Source: Spirogloea muscicola (lineage: Eukaryota > Streptophyta > Zygnematophyceae > Spirogloeales > Spirogloeaceae). Taken from it: a DNA stretch of 25,971 nt. The stretch covers positions 146,457 through 172,427 of the forward strand of contig WELB01000250.1 in the NCBI GenBank assembly GCA_009602725.1, given 5' to 3'. The notes beneath the pieces were generated by a model, which saw only the letters and a program-made list of their open reading frames with translations, did no database searches and was not told the DNA's origin. Shown piece after piece: positions 2,680 through 24,500 of this stretch (positions are counted from its first letter, which is position 1; the number at the start of each line of letters is the position of its first letter). Position numbers and translations under genes: made by a program.

Positions 2680-3440
2680 GGTCGCTGTGGAGAACTCCTC
2701 AGTGATGCCCATCAGCTGGGCGCGGACGGCCAGCCCCATGCACGGCGCGCCGACCTAGTCGCCATCCCGCCCGGCGGTGGTCCTCGCATCATCGCCGATG
2801 TGGTGACAACCGACTGCTTCGACTCCGCCAATCGCGGCCCTGGCGATTGATGTGCACGGGGCCTTCCGCAGCCGCTGGCTGGATCGTCTCCAGCGGCTTG
2901 CCCGTCAGGCCATTGATCGGCGGCCGGGACTGCCAGGAAGAAGGCTCGCCCATAGAGAAAGAGGGGCTGGCAAAGCCAGCCCAAAAAGAATGGACAATGC
3001 TCAAAGCCGAAGAATGAGATGCCGAGGAAGGGCTCCTCTACTCTACCAATCACGACAACATACTAGCGCTCCTGGTTTGTAGCGCCAGGAGCGCTGCCCG
3101 GCTTCAACGCCGCCGGTTCGCTTGCACAAGTCTTCCGCATGCGCCTGGCGGTATCGCTTCAACGCTCCCTTGCCCACGCCGTCCACACGCGAGCAGCCGT
3201 GCTATGGCCGCCGCCTCTGGGTCTTGGCGGAGTGCCTCTTCCCTGCAGCCAGCTATTCCGACCTGATGTTGCTCACTCGCGGGTACTGAGCTTCCCTTTG
3301 CGTCGTCGTGTGTTTTTTGCCGTGGTTTGTAGTGTAGTCCCATTTCGGCACCTCTTTCTTTGGCTTTGCACATTGTCCATTCTTTTTGGGCTGGCTTTGC
3401 CAGCCCCTCTTCGGGGCGAGCACTTTCTTTCTCCCAGCCA
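2680..3440 (+). pseudogene. REL LINE family A 3' end, interrupted and deleted
   Basis: The first block (about 2700-2838) encodes GADGQPHARRADLVA, then GGGPRIIADVVTTDC and SAN, which is the catalytic REL segment with D-X14-D spacing. About 100 bp are then missing relative to 25550-25650, removing the lysine-rich part that follows SAN. A second block (from about 2840) encodes ALAIDVHGAFRSRWLDRLQR and continues to GLPG, where a 164-bp minus-strand element (2935-3098) interrupts it. The frame resumes with FNAAGSLAQVFRMRLAVSLQ and ends SYSDLMLLTRGY-stop at about 3286. The 3' tail, with GGGCTGGCTTTGCCAGCCC and GGGCGAGCACTTTCTTTC, ends near 3437. The copy is clearly dead but shows the full layout of ORF end, untranslated region and hairpin tail. 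Confidence 0.85.
2935..3098 (-). mobile_element. short minus-strand tail element inserted in LINE
   Basis: This 164-bp insert interrupts the LINE frame between the G-L-P-G and F-N-A-A-G codons. The 5-bp word CTGCC occurs at both edges (2930-2934 and 3094-3098), and removing the insert rejoins the conserved protein block. Read on the minus strand, it ends with the type I hairpin tail (GGGCTGGCTTTGCCAGCCC, CTATGGGCGAGCCTTCTTC). Its other end carries an 11-bp perfect inverted repeat (3065-3075 and 3085-3095) around a 9-nt loop. It has no coding capacity. Confidence 0.75.
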
Positions 3441-3610
3441 CCTGTCGTGCCTGCCCGTATAGAGCTCACAACACGTCGAAGTGCCACACCTGAAGCTCCG
3501 CCTACAGGCCAGGAATCTGCTTGGCTAGCAGCAACCTGCATGGCCTCACTACCGGATAAGCAGACCTGCAAAGAATGTGGCAGAAGAGTCACCACACAGT
3601 GCGCGAGTGA

Positions 3611-4422
3611 CGGGGCTGAGCGAATCACCCAAGGCCGCGCGGGGGGCGGACACCCCGACCGCCTGCAGTGACAATTCAGGGGCTTCCGAAAGGGGCCCCT
3701 GCAGGTCAATTCAACCCCTTTTGCCTGCGCCGGTATCCGTGGTTGAGGAATCGTTGGCGGCGGAGCAGCCACCAAGCACTCGTGCCGTCGGGGTGGTCCT
3801 TGCAGGAGGGAGTCCGTCGCCTCCTAAGCGGCGGGTGTCGGAGCGGCTGGAGATCACCCCCGATGTGGCGTTGGTGGAGAACAGCCGCGGCCTTATCACC
3901 TTCAATGGCGCGGCGCCGCAACGGGTAATGCTCGATACGGGGGCGCAGCCAGTGCTGCTCGGTCACAGCATGGCGCGGCAGCTGGGGCTGCACGCGCAGG
4001 ACTTGCAGCCTTCCCCCATCGCCATAAAGACGGCAACAGGAGGCGTCTCGGTGGGCCTGCGGCAGACCAAGAAGCCTGTCTGCATCACCATCAACAAGGG
4101 TTCCGGACGAGGTCAGCCAGAACCTCCACTGCTTGCTGACGGAGGCTACTTCATACGACGTGCTCCTTGGGCCGGAGTTCCTGTACCCCTGCGGTGTTAG
4201 CATTGACCTACGGGAAGAGGTAGCGAGATATCGCCCGGGGGTCGCATGTGGAGAGGGGCGTCAGGTGGAGATCCCACTGCAGCTGGTGGCTGCAGCGGAG
4301 GATGGGGCCGCATTTCGCTTGCTACGGAGAAGCAGCATGGGTGCGTGGCGACTTGTGTGACATGCCGCAGGACGAGGCGGCCACCACGCCACTGGCGCCT
4401 GTGCGGGCGGGAAGCTGCTGCC
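3611..4422 (+). pseudogene. Ty3/gypsy-like aspartic protease, left palindrome arm
   Basis: The frame encodes PSTRAVGVVLAGGSPSPPKR and then RGLITFNGAAPQRVMLDTGA, a retropepsin active-site block with D-T-G-A (catalytic Asp codon at 3934-3936). This is followed by PVLLGHSMARQLGL. A 2-base loss near 4100 shifts the frame relative to the other arm. After it, YDVLLGPEFLYPCGVSID (4149-4206) supplies the second conserved retropepsin segment (LLGxxFL). RT is not attached. The segment is mirrored almost exactly by 4480-5292 on the other strand. By domain it is an LTR-retrotransposon Pol fragment, probably Ty3/gypsy-like because of the nearby gypsy RNase H and integrase remnants, but retropepsins alone do not settle the superfamily. 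Confidence 0.75.
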
Positions 4423-5292
4423 ACGCCCGGTCCACCAGCTCTTTCACCTGCCTCACTTGCATCACGGGCCTATGGCCAGCGGCAGCTGCTCCCACCCGCA
4501 CAGGTCGCCAGTGGCGTGGTCGCCGCCTCGTCCTGCGGCATGTCACACAAGTCGCTACCCACCCATGCTGCTTCTCCGTAGCAAGCGAAATGCGGCCCCA
4601 TCCTCCGCTGCAGCCACCAGCTGCAGTGGGATCTCCACCTGACGCCCCTCTCCACATGCGGCCCCCGGGCGATATCTCGCTACCAATTCCCATAGGTCAA
4701 TGCTAACACCGCAGGGGTACAGGAACTCCGGCCCAAGGAGCACGTCGTATGAAGTAGCCTCCGTCAGCAAGCAGTGGAGGTTCTGGCTGACCTCGTCCGG
4801 ACCACCCTTGTTGATGGTGATGCAGACAGGCTTCTTGGTCTGCCGCAGGCCCACCAAGACGCCTCCTGTTGCCGTCTTTACGCCATGGGGGAAGGCTGCA
4901 AGTCCTGCGCGCGCAGCCCCAGCTGCCGCGCCATGCTGTGACCGAGCAGCACTGGCTGCGCCCCCGTATCGAGCACTACCCGTTGCGGCGCCGCGCCATT
5001 GAAGGTGATAAGGCCGCGGCTGTTCTCCACCAACGCCACATCGGGGGTGATCTCCAGTCGCTCCGACACCCGCCGCTTAGGAGGCGACGGACTCCCTCCT
5101 GCAAGGACCGCCCCGACGGCACGAGTGCTTGGTGGCTGCTCCGCCGCCAACGAGTCCTCAACCAAGGATGCCGGCGCAGGCAAAAGGGTTTGAACCGACC
5201 TGCAGGGGCCCCTTTCGGAAGTCCCTGAATTGTCACTGCAGGCGGTCGGGGTGTTCGCCCCCTGCGCGGCCATGGGTGATTCGCTCAGCCCA
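3611..5292. repeat. large inverted repeat (about 810-bp arms, about 57-bp spacer)
   Basis: Positions 3611-4422 and 4480-5292 are reverse complements of each other with only scattered differences. For example, 3612-3630 mirrors 5274-5292, and 4394-4422 mirrors the sequence starting near 4480. The spacer is roughly 4423-4479. Both arms contain the same retropepsin segment. The structure could fold into a long hairpin. Confidence 0.85.
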
Positions 5293-5843
5293 GCCACGTC
5301 GCCCTCCAGCGCGTCCGGAAGGTGCTGCTGCAGTGCTTGCCGCAGCGCCAACTCTGAGCAGCCCACGCTTGCCAACGACGACAAGGGCGTGCTCATGAGT
5401 GCGGCCGCTAGCTGCCGCGCGGAGACTTGCCCCACGCCCTCTCCGACCTCGGCTGGCTGTGCATTCACCGCCGCTGGACCGTCTGCAGCCACCTCCGCCA
5501 CTCTTGCAAACGACAATGGGTAACGCCCGCCCTGCTCCTCACGGCGGCCGTGCTCTCTACCCGCCAAGCGATCGGCACCCCCTGTAGGCTGGCGGTTACC
5601 ACGCCCATGCCGCCCCGCCATCGCTGCATCTACCATCTCTACACCCATTCCGTAGCGGAGGCGATGTTCCGCCTCTTCTTCCTCTCTTCGAACCCCCCCC
5701 CGCCCATGCATGCGTGCCACGCCAGCCGCGCCCCGCCGGTTACCGGGCACTCGCCACGTCACAGGCCCGGACGGCCATGCAAGAAGGTGCTCTCCCAAAG
5801 AAGTTAGGGGCAGGGAAAGAAGTGGCTCTCCCACTGGGGGCAA
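4480..5843 (-). pseudogene. Ty3/gypsy-like gag/protease fragment, right palindrome arm
   Basis: On the minus strand an open frame starts at 5843 and runs 321 codons. Its N-terminal half is arginine- and alanine-rich and unassigned (possibly the end of Gag). Its second half repeats the protease block of the left arm, with the VLDTGAQPVLLGHSM motif (catalytic Asp codon at 4968-4970). The frame stops just after L-Q-P-S-P because of a one-base loss near 4886. Downstream the homologous sequence continues in another frame with YDVLLGPEFLYPCGVSID to about 4670. The two arms carry different disabling changes, so neither encodes a whole protease. Only this arm extends upstream of the palindrome (5293-5843). 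Confidence 0.75.
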
Positions 5844-6230
5844 GGCTGTGAAAAGCCAGCCCGAAAGGAAGCTGAAAAAGGTCCGAAGGGGCCGATGACG
5901 GAGAAGCCTTCAAAATTGCAAGGGGCTGGGAAAAGCCAGCCCAAAAAGAATAGACAAGGTCTGAAGAGCCTAATGGCGCCTATACCACACAGCTATGCAC
6001 AAGACTACCGCAGATGGAAGCTAAGTAACCACGAGTGAGCAGCAGCAAGTCGAAGTAACTCGCAGCTGGGAAAGAAGCACCTCGCCGTAACCCAGAAGCA
6101 GCAGCCTCAGCGCGGCCTGCCCGCAAGTGGACTGCGTGTTCCAGGCAGCGTTGGAAAGGGACAAAGAGCCGCATGCGGGATACCTGGGCAAGCGACCCGG
6201 GCAGCGTTGTAGCCGGAAGCAGAAGTGGCT
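5785..6230 (-). mobile_element. REL LINE 3' end with tail invaded by a second tail
   Basis: Read on the minus strand from about 6230, the fragment gives a damaged FNAAGSLAQVSRMRLFVPFQ, then HAVHLRAGRAEAAASGLRRG and SYFDLLLLTRGY. The normal TGA stop is read as TTA, so the frame runs on to about 5980. The 3' tail follows (GGGCTGGCTTTTCCCAGCCC at about 5928-5947). That tail is interrupted by an independent hairpin unit (about 5903 down to 5817: TCCGTCAT..., GGGCTGGCTTTTCACAGCC, CAGTGGGAGAGCCACTTCTT). Remaining tail sequence continues to about 5785. The arrangement is one tail nested in another. Confidence 0.7.
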
Positions 6231-17401: not shown

Positions 17402-19314
17402 ATGGCACAATCCATGCTGCTCGTTGCTTTCGCGCTCGGCCTCGCGCTTGCTGCTGTGCCCGCTGCCGCCGAGTGGGGCACGATCGACGGCTACATCTAC
17501 AAGGACCCCTGTGGTCACGGGGGCTCGCCTGGCAACCCCCACAGCACGCCCCTTCAGGGTGCTACGTTGAAGGTCACCTGCGACTACGGCACTGGTTCCC
17601 ACGGCGTCTCAGGCCTTCGCTTGTACACCGCCAAGACCGATGCCAGTGCGTGCCCCTGTCCTATCCACCCAGCCAACCCCTTGCGAGCTTGTAAATGGAG
17701 AATGTTGGCCCTTGCTGTGACTTGTTGCCCTCATGCCGGCCTTCCTTACCCTGACCCTATGCACCCATGCTGTTCTTCCCGCCCTCGACGCCTCCATTCA
17801 GTCAAGCATGACCGAAACCTCCTCCCTCTGCTGGCCCATGAGCGCAGCCGGATACTACATTGTGCGGCAGATCTACTCGCGAACCATGATTCCGCAGCTC
17901 AAGCCGAACGGCTGCGCGCTCAGCATGGTCTCCGGCACCACTGCATACTCCAAGAAAGGGCCCGGCCCCAACGGCTACGCCTTAGACGTGCCCGGCCACA
18001 TCGAACTCCATGCGCCCACCGCCGGCTACTGGCGCCCCACAACGCGGCCGAGCCCTCCTACATGCGCGCCCTGCAACGCTACGGGCGCTCTCTGCGGCGA
18101 CCCCCGCCTCGTCGGTGGCGATGGCATTGCTTTCTGGTTCCATGGCGAGCGCGAGCGCGACTTTTGCATCGTTTCCGACGCTGCGCTGCACATCAACGCG
18201 CACTTCATTGGCAAGCGCTCGGCTGATGGCGCACACGATCTCACTTGGGTCCAAGCCGTTGGCATCCTCTTCGGGCATGGGTCCAAGCCGTTTGCATCCT
18301 CAGGCCCCTTTGTAGCTGCTCACCGCTCTTAGGCCCCTCTGAACCTTTGTGAATTCTTTTTGGGCTGGCTTTTCGCAGCCCTTGCCCCCATTGGGAGTGC
18401 CACTTCTTCTTCGGGCAGCACAAGCTGTACATTGGCGCCCAGCAGGAGGCCGTGTGGGACCCTACTGCCGACCACCTCTTCTTCAGCCTCGACGGCCTGG
18501 TGAGTCAAATTGCGCTCTTGTGCTCCTTACCATCCTCCTCGAAGGTGTCTTATGGTCGAGCCCCCAGTTCTCCTCGGCTATTGCTTGGTGTTCCACACCT
18601 TGCCTGTTGAAGCACAGCCAGCTTCTAGCTTGGACATGCTCACTGACTTTGCTGGTGTGCCGCTTCTACAGCCTGTCATGGACGTTGTGCGCACTGGCGG
18701 GCAGCGGGAATTTGTCTCAGCCAACGGCGAAGTGAAAATTGAGAGGTCGGGCGTCCTCAATCACGCTCGCATTGAGATTGTGGGCCTCTTGAGCGTGACC
18801 ATCGATGTCAAGCCCATCGCACGCAAGGACTGGACCGAGGACAGCTGCCTTGCACATCTCGACCTCAGCTTCGAGTTCAGTCAGCTCTCTGGTCAGTTCC
18901 TTCGACAAGCTTCTGACTGCAGAATGGAACTTCCAGGGCTGCCGCGATTCTGCACATGTATGGTAATCAGCAAGGAGCTTGCCAATAGCTACACTTACAC
19001 GATAATTGAATGGCACAGGTCGCGTCGAGGGCGTCCTCGGACAGACGTACCAGAAGTCGTGGTCGCCCAATGACCGTGCAGTCGCTGACCTCAAGACGTA
19101 CATCCTGCACGAGGTTGACACATACCGCAGCTCAAGCCTCTTCTCTACCGACTGCACCGTCAGCACTTTTGAGGCGGCGCCCTACCTGCAGGGCGGCACG
19201 TCGGGCTACATTCAGACAGCACTCCTTGACGACCAGGAGGAGCCTGAGGAGGGCACCTCCCGTTGCTTCCATGACGCTGTCAGCGGTGGCCTCAAGTGCC
19301 TCGATCGTCGCTAA
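17402..19314 (+). CDS. secreted Ole e 1-like plus Root_cap (LEA-related) protein
   Basis: The ATG at 17402 is in a strong context (GCCACCATGG). Residues 1-23 look like a signal peptide cleaved after AAA, so the protein should be secreted, perhaps to the cell wall. Proposed exons: 17402-17645, 17848-18280, 18379-18499, 18672-18891, 19019-19314 (437 residues, stop TAA). Introns are GT-AG and phases agree. Residues about 24-130 resemble Pollen Ole e 1-like domains (LQGATLKVTC; TDATGYYIVR, formed across intron 1). The Root_cap domain follows: CGDPRLVGGDGIAFWFHG, DFCIVSDAALHINAHFIGKR, HKLYIG, LAHLDLSFEF, VEGVLGQTY, SSLFSTDC. Biochemical function is unknown for this family. Intron 2 is uncertain: it lies in a tail-element insertion, and a donor at 18312 with acceptor at 18418 also fits. 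If neither is used, the frame ends at 18330-18332. Confidence 0.8.
18302..18409 (+). mobile_element. hairpin-tail element inside Root_cap gene
   Basis: The segment has the solo-tail pattern: TTAGGCCCCTCTGAACC, a T-rich run, GGGCTGGCTTTTCGCAGCCC, TTGCCCCCATTGGGAGTGCC, ACTTCTTC. It matches the minus-strand units at 5817-5903, 22014-22105 and 24264-24354. It splits the conserved Root_cap stretch G-I-L-F-G / H-K-L-Y-I-G. Just upstream, 18246-18269 is repeated at 18278-18301 (24 nt, one mismatch; 32-bp period). The last 8 bases of that unit (TTCGGGCA) reappear right after the insert at 18410-18417. The element's own TTTTCGCAG (ending 18378) and the flanking TTCTTCGGGCAG (ending 18418) are both usable splice acceptors. 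Confidence 0.75.
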
Positions 19315-22013: not shown

Positions 22014-22105
22014 GAAAGACAGTGGAACTCCCAATGGGGCAAGGGCTGTGAAAAGTCAGCCCGAGTAAACATTAACAAAGCTTCGAAGAGGCCAAAATGA
22101 CGGAG
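22014..22105 (-). mobile_element. solo type II hairpin-tail unit (about 90 bp)
   Basis: Read on the minus strand it goes from TCCGTCATTTTGGCC, through GGGCTGACTTTTCACAGCCC and TTGCCCCATTGGGAGTTCC, to ACTGTCTTTC. Length and both ends agree with the units at 5817-5903 and 24264-24354. It has no coding capacity. Confidence 0.7.
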
Positions 22106-23990: not shown

Positions 23991-24500
23991 TACGCGATGG
24001 CTTGACCTTCTTCAGCGCCTTGCGCGGCGTGCGGTGGCTTGCCGCCAAGGGCAGCAGAGCGAGCAGCCTGGCTTCAATACCGCCGGGTCCCTTGCTCAAG
24101 TGTTCCGGATGCGCTCGCCCATGTCCTTGCAGAGGTCCCTTGCCTTCGCTGTCCACTTGCGTGCAGGCCGCTCCTTGGCTGCTGCCCTTGGTGTCCGTCA
24201 GGGCGGACGTCTATCCGCCTGCTAGTTACTCTGACTCGCAATTTCTGGCTCGAGATTACCGAGAAGAAGTGGCTCTCCCAATGGGGGCAAGGGCTTTGAA
24301 ACATCAGCCCAAAAAAAATTTGACAAAGATTCGAAGGGGCCAAATGACGGAGGGGAGGTTACTGAGAGCCCCTTTGCTGCCGTCTTAGCAATCAATCTCT
24401 TGCTTTTTGTGCCATCCGGCCCCTCCCGACCTTGTACTTCTTCTGGGCTGGCCTCTCACGGCCACAGTTAAATCGGAAGCGCTATTCTCTTACTCCTCTT
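23990..24500 (+). pseudogene. REL LINE 3' end, head-to-tail copy 4, interrupted
   Basis: The copy encodes RWLDLLQRLARRAVACRQGQ, PGFNTAGSLAQVFRM, SLQRSLAFAVHLRAGRSLAA and ALGVRQGG, then loses frame before the SYSDxxxLxRGY end. At the stop codon region a 91-bp minus-strand tail unit (24264-24354) is inserted. The sequence GAGGTTACTGAGAGCCCC then resumes, followed by a type III tail with GGGCTGGCCTCTCACGGCC at about 24447 and GGAAGCGCTATTCTC. Confidence 0.75.
24264..24354 (-). mobile_element. 91-bp solo tail unit with 12-bp TSD
   Basis: The insert is flanked by GAGATTACCGAG (24252-24263) and GAGGTTACTGAG (24355-24366), a 12-bp duplication with two differences. Removing it restores the normal LINE stop region. 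On the minus strand it reads from TCCGTCATTTGGCCCC, through GGGCTGATGTTTCAAAGCCC, to TTGGGAGAGCCACTTCTT. It is non-coding. Confidence 0.8.

What the first reader, a model, noticed from the sequence alone, without database searches (positions are those of the whole stretch)
18246..18421. Retrotransposon tail insertion that may have become a spliceable intron
In the Root_cap gene the conserved stretch G-I-L-F-G / H-K-L-Y-I-G is split by a 108-bp hairpin-tail element (18302-18409), beside a 32-bp-period duplication of host coding sequence (18246-18269 repeated at 18278-18301, with TTCGGGCA completing the second unit at 18410-18417). Left in the mRNA, it gives a stop at 18330-18332. The element and its edge supply plausible acceptors (TTTTCGCAG at 18378; TTCTTCGGGCAG at 18418). 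Phase-compatible GT donors exist at 18281 and 18312, either restoring the downstream frame with about 11-13 extra residues. This looks like intron birth from a short repeat (introner-like), or else a very recent gene knockout.
Basis: partly seen in the sequence, partly recalled or inferred. Interest (0 to 1): 0.82.

Follow-up and report, generated by a model that had tools for sequence, protein, structure and literature searches.

The report
Retrotransposon tail breaking a gene
A short tail of a recently active jumping gene (a LINE) has landed inside a protein-coding exon and breaks its reading frame; it brings usable intron ends but no good intron beginning, so it looks like an ordinary recent gene disruption rather than a newborn intron.

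Summary
The insertion is real, but its boundaries need correcting. Close paralog C74 shows the empty site; the added block is 18278-18417, 140 bp, not a multiple of three. The mobile part is 18292-18409 (118 bp), not 18302-18409. Of 43 listed genome matches, 40 (this copy included) are 100% identical over 120-121 bp; a 28-base core occurs 770 times. In 91 copies the 5' ends are staggered, and 34 of 77 have target-site duplications above a 5% null: 5'-truncated LINE insertions. The 32-bp "duplication" is an 8-10-bp target-site duplication plus 14 bp recopied from the host exon, best explained by a microhomology template switch. A splice-site model from 68 introns of the gene family rates three acceptors as typical but the insert's donors as poor; composition-shuffled tails give frame-restoring GT-AG pairs in 80% of trials. 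None of 24 paralogs has an intron at this site, though nine have one 23 nt upstream. Most likely: a very recent LINE insertion that truncates one member of a large Root_cap family before its Root_cap domain. Intron birth is not excluded without RNA, but has little support.

The parts
17402..19314 (+). Root_cap-family gene: exons 17402-17645, 17848-18499 (interrupted by the insert), 18672-18891, 19019-19314 (TAA 19312-19314)
   Evidence: ORF pieces; spliced alignment to family proteins; Pfam PF06830; start and stop letters. Introns 17646-17847, 18500-18671, 18892-19018. No transcript data.
18270..18277 (+). left copy of the target-site duplication, TTCGGGCA (10 bp, TCTTCGGGCA, if the ambiguous TC is counted)
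   Evidence: one search scores it 8.0 against null 95% = 5.8 and 99% = 8.48; empty site
18278..18291 (+). 14-nt filler TGGGTCCAAGCCGT, an exact copy of host 18246-18259
18292..18409 (+). 118-bp 3' end of a LINE, 5'-truncated, ending CACTTCTTC
   Evidence: 39 other copies 100% identical over 120-121 bp; staggered 5' ends in 91 copies
18362..18381 (+). possible hairpin of the LINE 3' end (GGGCTG...CAGCCC, 6-bp stem)
   Evidence: found when a 36-nt piece is folded; the best fold of the whole 118 nt chooses another pairing of the same region; similar inverted repeats in other tails of the window by eye
18410..18417 (+). right copy of the target-site duplication, TTCGGGCA
18330..18332 (+). in-frame TAG brought by the insert; the product would end 18 residues after the host sequence ...GILFG
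18246..18259 (+). host sequence that served as template for the filler, followed by TGGCATCCTC, which matches the element start TTGCATCCTC at 9 of 10

Best explanation
A LINE-type (non-LTR) retrotransposon inserted its 3' end into exon 2 of one Root_cap-family gene by target-primed reverse transcription. The bottom strand was nicked before TTCGGGCA and the LINE RNA was reverse transcribed from its CTTCTTC end. Synthesis stopped after about 118 nt. The free cDNA end (complement of TTGCATCCTC) then annealed to the near-identical host sequence TGGCATCCTC just beside the nick and was extended for about 14 nt along the host strand. The extended end was joined to the top strand, nicked 8 nt further on. 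This leaves target-site duplication, 14-nt host filler, LINE tail, target-site duplication. The result is a frameshift (140 bp) and a stop 18 codons later, which removes the Root_cap domain. Shown: the empty site in a paralog, the LINE-like truncation pattern, duplications, filler, frame break and stop. Inferred: the order of strand events and the loss of function.
For: Empty site in the close paralog C74. 40 of 43 listed matches, this copy included, 100% identical over 120-121 bp (40 of 1816 candidates scored). 770 exact core copies, 382 forward and 388 reverse, 0 reversed-control hits. Staggered 5' ends in 91 copies, element lengths 55 to 742 nt, the upper end limited by the fetched flank; 62 of 77 evaluable copies match the last 14 nt at 13 or 14 places. 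Target-site duplications above the 95% null in 34 of 77 evaluable copies, against about 4 expected. Longer copies carry an ORF upstream of the tail; a sister copy 66% identical in that ORF has a reverse transcriptase domain, RVT_1 E 1.5e-13. Filler is an exact copy of nearby host DNA joined at a 9-of-10 match. Donors poor. Shuffled-tail control. The Root_cap domain lies wholly after the insert.
Against: No transcript data, so splicing was not measured. The splice-site model comes from one gene family only (68 introns in 37 groups, inferred by protein-guided alignment with GT-AG assumed), and one real donor group scores as low as -2.5, so poor donors are sometimes used here. Three acceptors in or at the edge of the insert are good (each reached by 1-2% of 1462 exonic AG decoys). 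The target-site duplication of this copy alone scores between the 95% and 99% null, and 43 of 77 copies have none above the 95% null. A prior 32-bp tandem duplication followed by a LINE insertion without target-site duplication would give the same letters. The reverse transcriptase was read in a sister copy, not in this subfamily; in the one near-identical copy read upstream (L122) the frame was interrupted.
Confidence: 0.88

Rival explanations
1. Intron birth: the tail is removed by the spliceosome, using its acceptor at 18378 or the hybrid acceptor at 18418 and a weak donor in the filler (18281, 18290) or in the element (18312), so that the gene still makes a protein with 11 to 17 extra residues.
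For: Acceptors 18378 (score 7.2), 18418 (8.5) and 18303 (8.5) score at or above 19, 25 and 25 of 37 real groups; only 1-2% of exonic AG decoys do as well. Frame-restoring pairs inside the insert exist: 18290-18378, 18281-18378, 18312-18418, 18312-18397. The first three would be introns of 89, 98 and 107 nt; family introns run from 66 to 368 nt. In print, some introners carry one splice site and take the other from the target (PMC9860276, passages read).
Against: Donors 18281, 18290 and 18312 score -6.4, -2.1 and -9.6; real donor groups run from -2.5 to 11.7, and 86%, 59% and 97% of 1236 exonic GT decoys score as well or better. Shuffled tails give a pair in 79.9% and one as good in 39.4% of 1000. 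None of 24 paralogs has an intron there.
Confidence: 0.06
2. Altered splicing: the good acceptors of the tail pair with a donor upstream in exon 2, or with the donor of intron 1, so part of exon 2 is lost from the mRNA rather than a clean new intron being made.
For: Among 54 frame-restoring pairs the ones with the highest summed scores use exon 2 donors, for example 17928-18418, 18137-18378 and 17988-18418; acceptors good. Pairing with the intron 1 donor was not computed.
Against: Those exon 2 donors also score low (at most 3.0; only the lowest few real groups are that low); such products would lose from about 47 to about 117 host residues. No RNA tested.
Confidence: 0.1
3. Two events: a 32-bp tandem duplication of the exon first, then a LINE tail inserted in the second unit, joined by the 10-bp near-match without any target-site duplication.
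Against: Needs an extra event that would itself shift the frame (32 is not a multiple of three); leaves the TTCGGGCA duplication, common in the family (34 of 77 copies), as a by-product; the paralog C74 has one unit only.
Confidence: 0.08
4. Ancient intron at this place that merely picked up the repeat.
For: Nine of 24 paralogs (L040, L046-L050, L056-L058) have a phase-0 intron close by, between WVQ and A.
Against: That intron lies 23 nt upstream and in another phase; none of the 24 paralogs has one at the insertion point; the exon reads through in C74, C15, C2, C46, C47 and C66.
Confidence: 0.01

Closest known systems
5'-truncated insertions of non-LTR retrotransposons (LINEs) by target-primed reverse transcription
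   Same: Shared 3' end, staggered 5' ends, short target-site duplications, insertion in many places; 5' truncation from incomplete reverse transcription is described as frequent (PMC2881922, passages read).
   Different: Nothing essential. The tail is CTTCTTC rather than poly(A).
Restriction-like-endonuclease LINEs (R2, NeSL, HERO, Utopia, Dualen groups)
   Same: The ORF upstream of the tail ends with a Cys-Cys-His-Cys stretch and a D-x14-D stretch that by eye (motif recalled) resemble that endonuclease; the sister copy has two Cys2-His2-like stretches before its reverse transcriptase. Utopia has that order of parts (PMC4640811, passages read).
   Different: Most such families are target-specific (PMC4640811, abstract passage); this one is spread over many contigs. 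The endonuclease match is by eye only; Pfam and PDB searches found nothing. Clade not assigned.
Insertion-site rearrangements of R1 and 5' junction microhomology of R1/R2 in Drosophila
   Same: A target-site duplication with an extra copy of upstream target DNA, and microhomology at truncated 5' ends (PMC2718515, passages read).
   Different: There the extra copy is 28S rDNA in full-length R1 at a fixed site; here it is 14 nt of a protein exon in a truncated copy.
Introners
   Same: Short repeated element inside a coding exon with a target-site duplication; some introners supply one splice site only (PMC9860276, passages read).
   Different: No good donor, frame and stop not resolved without splicing, no clear exon preference seen, LINE origin. 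In the main text of PMC9860276 the stem retrotranspos occurs once, in a reference title, and non-LTR not at all, while DNA transposon occurs nine times.

Membership tests
LINE (non-LTR retrotransposon) insertion | shared 3' end with variable 5' truncation | tested here: met
   91 copies; 62 of 77 match the last 14 nt at 13-14 places; earlier 31 copies
LINE (non-LTR retrotransposon) insertion | target-site duplications of variable length | tested here: met
   34 of 77 above the 95% null; this copy 8-10 bp, empty site known
LINE (non-LTR retrotransposon) insertion | reverse transcriptase encoded by long copies | tested here: inconclusive
   RVT_1 found in a sister copy 66% identical in the C-terminal ORF; in the one near-identical copy read upstream (L122) the frame was interrupted
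LINE (non-LTR retrotransposon) insertion | no long terminal repeats, no terminal inverted repeats | tested here: inconclusive
   none seen in the printed ends of truncated copies; no dedicated search and no full-length copy examined
Restriction-like-endonuclease LINE | CCHC motif plus PD-(D/E)xK-like endonuclease after the reverse transcriptase | tested here: inconclusive
   seen by eye in the ORF; no Pfam or PDB match
Introner | many near-identical copies that are themselves introns in genes | tested here: inconclusive
   70 joined flanks: stop-free stretch median 142.5 against 126 codons at control points; eight of the sixteen longest had no Pfam domain; no annotation or RNA at hand
Introner | good donor and acceptor carried by the element or taken from the target | tested here: not met
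   acceptors good; donors in the insert ahead of the stop score below all real groups, or below all but one for 18290
Introner | splicing seen in RNA | not testable with these tools
   no transcript data

The most novel reading that the evidence does not exclude
A LINE whose 3' end carries ready-made acceptors (its CTTCTTC tail becomes a pyrimidine tract in front of whatever AG the target offers, and its hairpin region holds TTTTCGCAG) acts as a half-introner: each exonic landing supplies a 3' splice site, and wherever the target or the copied filler happens to give a donor, a new intron is born. In this gene the weak donor 18290 or 18281 would do so now.
Probability: 0.06. Interest if true: 0.72.

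Novelty: new member of a known kind. Interest (0 to 1): 0.24.

Why it matters
It is a clean, very young example of how a LINE breaks a coding exon, with the empty site of a paralog, the target-site duplication and a copied host filler all readable, so it documents a microhomology step in 5' joining. For intron birth it is an instructive near-negative: a stop and frameshift plus GT and AG pairs are not evidence, since shuffled tails do about as well. If RNA did show splicing, a LINE as source of introns would be of interest, since the introner survey whose passages I read (PMC9860276) ties introners to DNA transposons.

Tried and rejected
Ancient intron at the site rejected. The first grouping of introns for the splice model merged nearly everything (3 groups), so it was redone with stricter grouping (38 and 37 groups); both stricter versions give the same picture, and the numbers given are those of the 37-group version. 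Rows dropped before the splice-site count: the forced 140-nt intron of the window copy, a 40-nt one in L043, an 84-nt one in L050, and all of L059. An allelic copy of the locus in the assembly was looked for and not found (self, pieces on the same contig at 85-86%, C74 pieces at 77-99%, weaker ones elsewhere). Of 91 element copies, 14 were dropped before the duplication count because of N or short flank. Junction fillers: of the 34 copies with a duplication, six have a filler of 5 nt or more; by shuffling, the window copy is clearly templated (1 of 500 shuffles reach it), the others are weak or not (18 to 500 of 500). Pfam scan of eight of the sixteen longest ORFs across insertion points gave nothing. 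Paper searches for retrotransposon insertions spliced as introns and for introners together with non-LTR elements showed ten listing rows each without such a case by title and abstract start; of those I opened for this question PMC7789003 (passages), where non-LTR elements are mentioned only as genome content. That is not proof of absence.

Full report
Setting. The window is C250:146457-172427 of a 153-Mb, 471-contig genome. The gene reads MAQSMLL... from 17402, with introns 17646-17847, 18500-18671 and 18892-19018 and a TAA at 19312-19314. Its second half matches Pfam Root_cap (PF06830, E 1.1e-13) and its first exon weakly Pollen_Ole_e_1 (15.8 bits, below the cut-off of 23).

Is the insert real? 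Yes, as far as the assembly goes. The closest paralog, C74 (97% identical protein over this exon), reads straight through the site: GGCATCCTCTTCGGGCA|GCACAAG. The window copy has 140 extra bases, 18278-18417. A search with the downstream part of the gene found no second near-identical copy of the locus, so whether all cells or strains carry the insert is not known.

What is it? A search with the 121-bp segment gave 43 listed matches, 40 of them (this copy included) 100% identical over 120-121 bp; only 40 of 1816 candidates were scored. An exact 28-base core occurs 770 times, 382 forward and 388 reverse, against 0 for the reversed pattern. In 91 copies examined the 5' ends are spread, with element lengths from 55 to 742 nt, the upper end limited by the fetched flank; 62 of 77 evaluable copies match the last 14 nt at 13 or 14 places. 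Duplicated target sites exceed the 95% null in 34 of the 77. Upstream of the tail, longer copies carry an ORF ending ...LSDLRLLTRTY or a close variant, which goes on upstream in L121. A protein search with that stretch listed 119 matches from 116 scored of 6240 candidates, the best from the same subfamily and many at 63-68% identity. A sister copy read further upstream has an open frame with two zinc-finger-like stretches and a reverse transcriptase domain (RVT_1, E 1.5e-13); the near-identical copy L122 was interrupted there. By eye the C-terminus resembles a CCHC plus restriction-like endonuclease, but Pfam and the PDB gave no match, so the clade is left open.

How did the odd repeat arise? 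In the window copy the order is: host ...TTCGGGCA, then TGGGTCCAAGCCGT, then the LINE from TTGCATCCTC to CACTTCTTC, then TTCGGGCA and the host again. The 14-nt filler is an exact copy of host 18246-18259. In the host the letters after that template are TGGCATCCTC; in the element they are TTGCATCCTC. A cDNA end that annealed there and was extended along the host strand gives the structure in one event. In Drosophila R1, duplicated target DNA beside a target-site duplication, and in R2 and R1 microhomology at truncated 5' ends, are described (PMC2718515, passages read). The alternative with a prior 32-bp tandem duplication cannot be excluded. Of 34 copies with a duplication, six have a filler of 5 nt or more; only this one is clearly templated.

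Can it be an intron? I aligned family proteins to 24 paralogs and the window gene with GT-AG introns allowed and took 68 introns (three doubtful ones and locus L059 left out), which fall into 37 groups. Real donor groups score from -2.5 to 11.7. Donors in the insert ahead of the stop: 18281 -6.4, 18290 -2.1, 18312 -9.6. Acceptors: 18303 8.5, 18378 7.2, 18418 8.5, at or above 25, 19 and 25 of 37 real groups, and reached by only 1-2% of 1462 exonic AG decoys. So the insert has good 3' splice sites and no good 5' splice site. There are 54 frame-restoring GT-AG pairs in the exon with its insert, four of them wholly inside the insert or its edge. Shuffling the tail 1000 times (single bases) gives at least one such inside pair in 79.9%, four or more in 32.7%, and one as good as the best in 39.4%. 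The presence of compatible sites is therefore no evidence by itself.

Is there an old intron? None of 24 paralogs has an intron at the insertion point. Nine have a phase-0 intron between WVQ and A, 23 nt upstream. The close paralogs C74, C15 and C2 do not.

Does the family behave as introners? For 70 copies whose flanks could be joined (this one among them), the stop-free stretch across the insertion point had a median of 142.5 codons against 126 at control points; the difference was not tested. Of the sixteen longest, several are other LINE coding regions or tails by eye; eight sent to Pfam had no domain. Among those sixteen the Root_cap copy is the only one I could place in a host coding exon. 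This is a small sample without annotation, so it is weak evidence.

Consequence. Read as retained, the protein ends 18 residues after ...GILFG at the TAG 18330-18332, before the Root_cap domain. The family has many other members (51 listed matches for exon 2, some weak or fragments), so loss of one may be tolerated. That is inference.

Verdict. A very recent 5'-truncated LINE insertion that breaks a coding exon, with a readable templated 5' junction. Known kind; low to moderate interest. The intron reading remains possible only through poor donors and needs RNA.

Noticed in passing
17848-18499 against C74 (L035): Exon 2 is 96.3% identical to the paralog (493 of 512, insert left out; third positions differ at 15 of 171), while exons 3 and 4 are 78% and intron 1 is 80%: a patch that looks like gene conversion, its edges close to the exon.
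   Followed up: partly
L040, L046-L050, L056-L058: Nine of 24 Root_cap paralogs share a phase-0 intron between WVQ and A, absent in the closest relatives; two of them have an unusual donor (GTCCGG in L040, GTCCAG in L046).
   Followed up: partly
18292-18409 read on the minus strand: In antisense the LINE tail carries a strong donor, GCG|GTGAGC (score 7.7, at or above 17 of 37 real groups); antisense insertions in genes could affect splicing.
   Followed up: no
L022, L024, L014, L017, L075: Five other LINE copies also show 6-20 extra bases between target-site duplication and element; in L022 eight of them repeat the flank, but 39 of 500 shuffles do as well.
   Followed up: partly
C250:175005-175855 (L059), about 2.6 kb beyond the window: A partial, decayed second copy of the same gene, 85-86% identical in two pieces, with the stretch from early exon 3 to the end of intron 3 missing and stops in the exon 2 part.
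   Followed up: partly
2964-3406, 5817-5973, 22016-22096, 24262-24344: Diverged relatives of the LINE tail, with GGGCTG...AGCCC-like inverted repeats by eye.
   Followed up: partly
3577-4200 (+) and 4878-5843 (-): ORFs with retroviral-type aspartyl protease domains (PF13650, PF13975), perhaps remains of LTR retrotransposons.
   Followed up: no
L011, L012, L030: A single N sits exactly at the 5' junction of these three LINE copies, possibly assembly gaps closed to one base.
   Followed up: no
C46, C47, C66 (L038, L039, L041): Three Root_cap genes, alike by eye, in which exons 2 to 4 are fused and only a 5' intron is left: intron loss or a partly processed copy.
   Followed up: no
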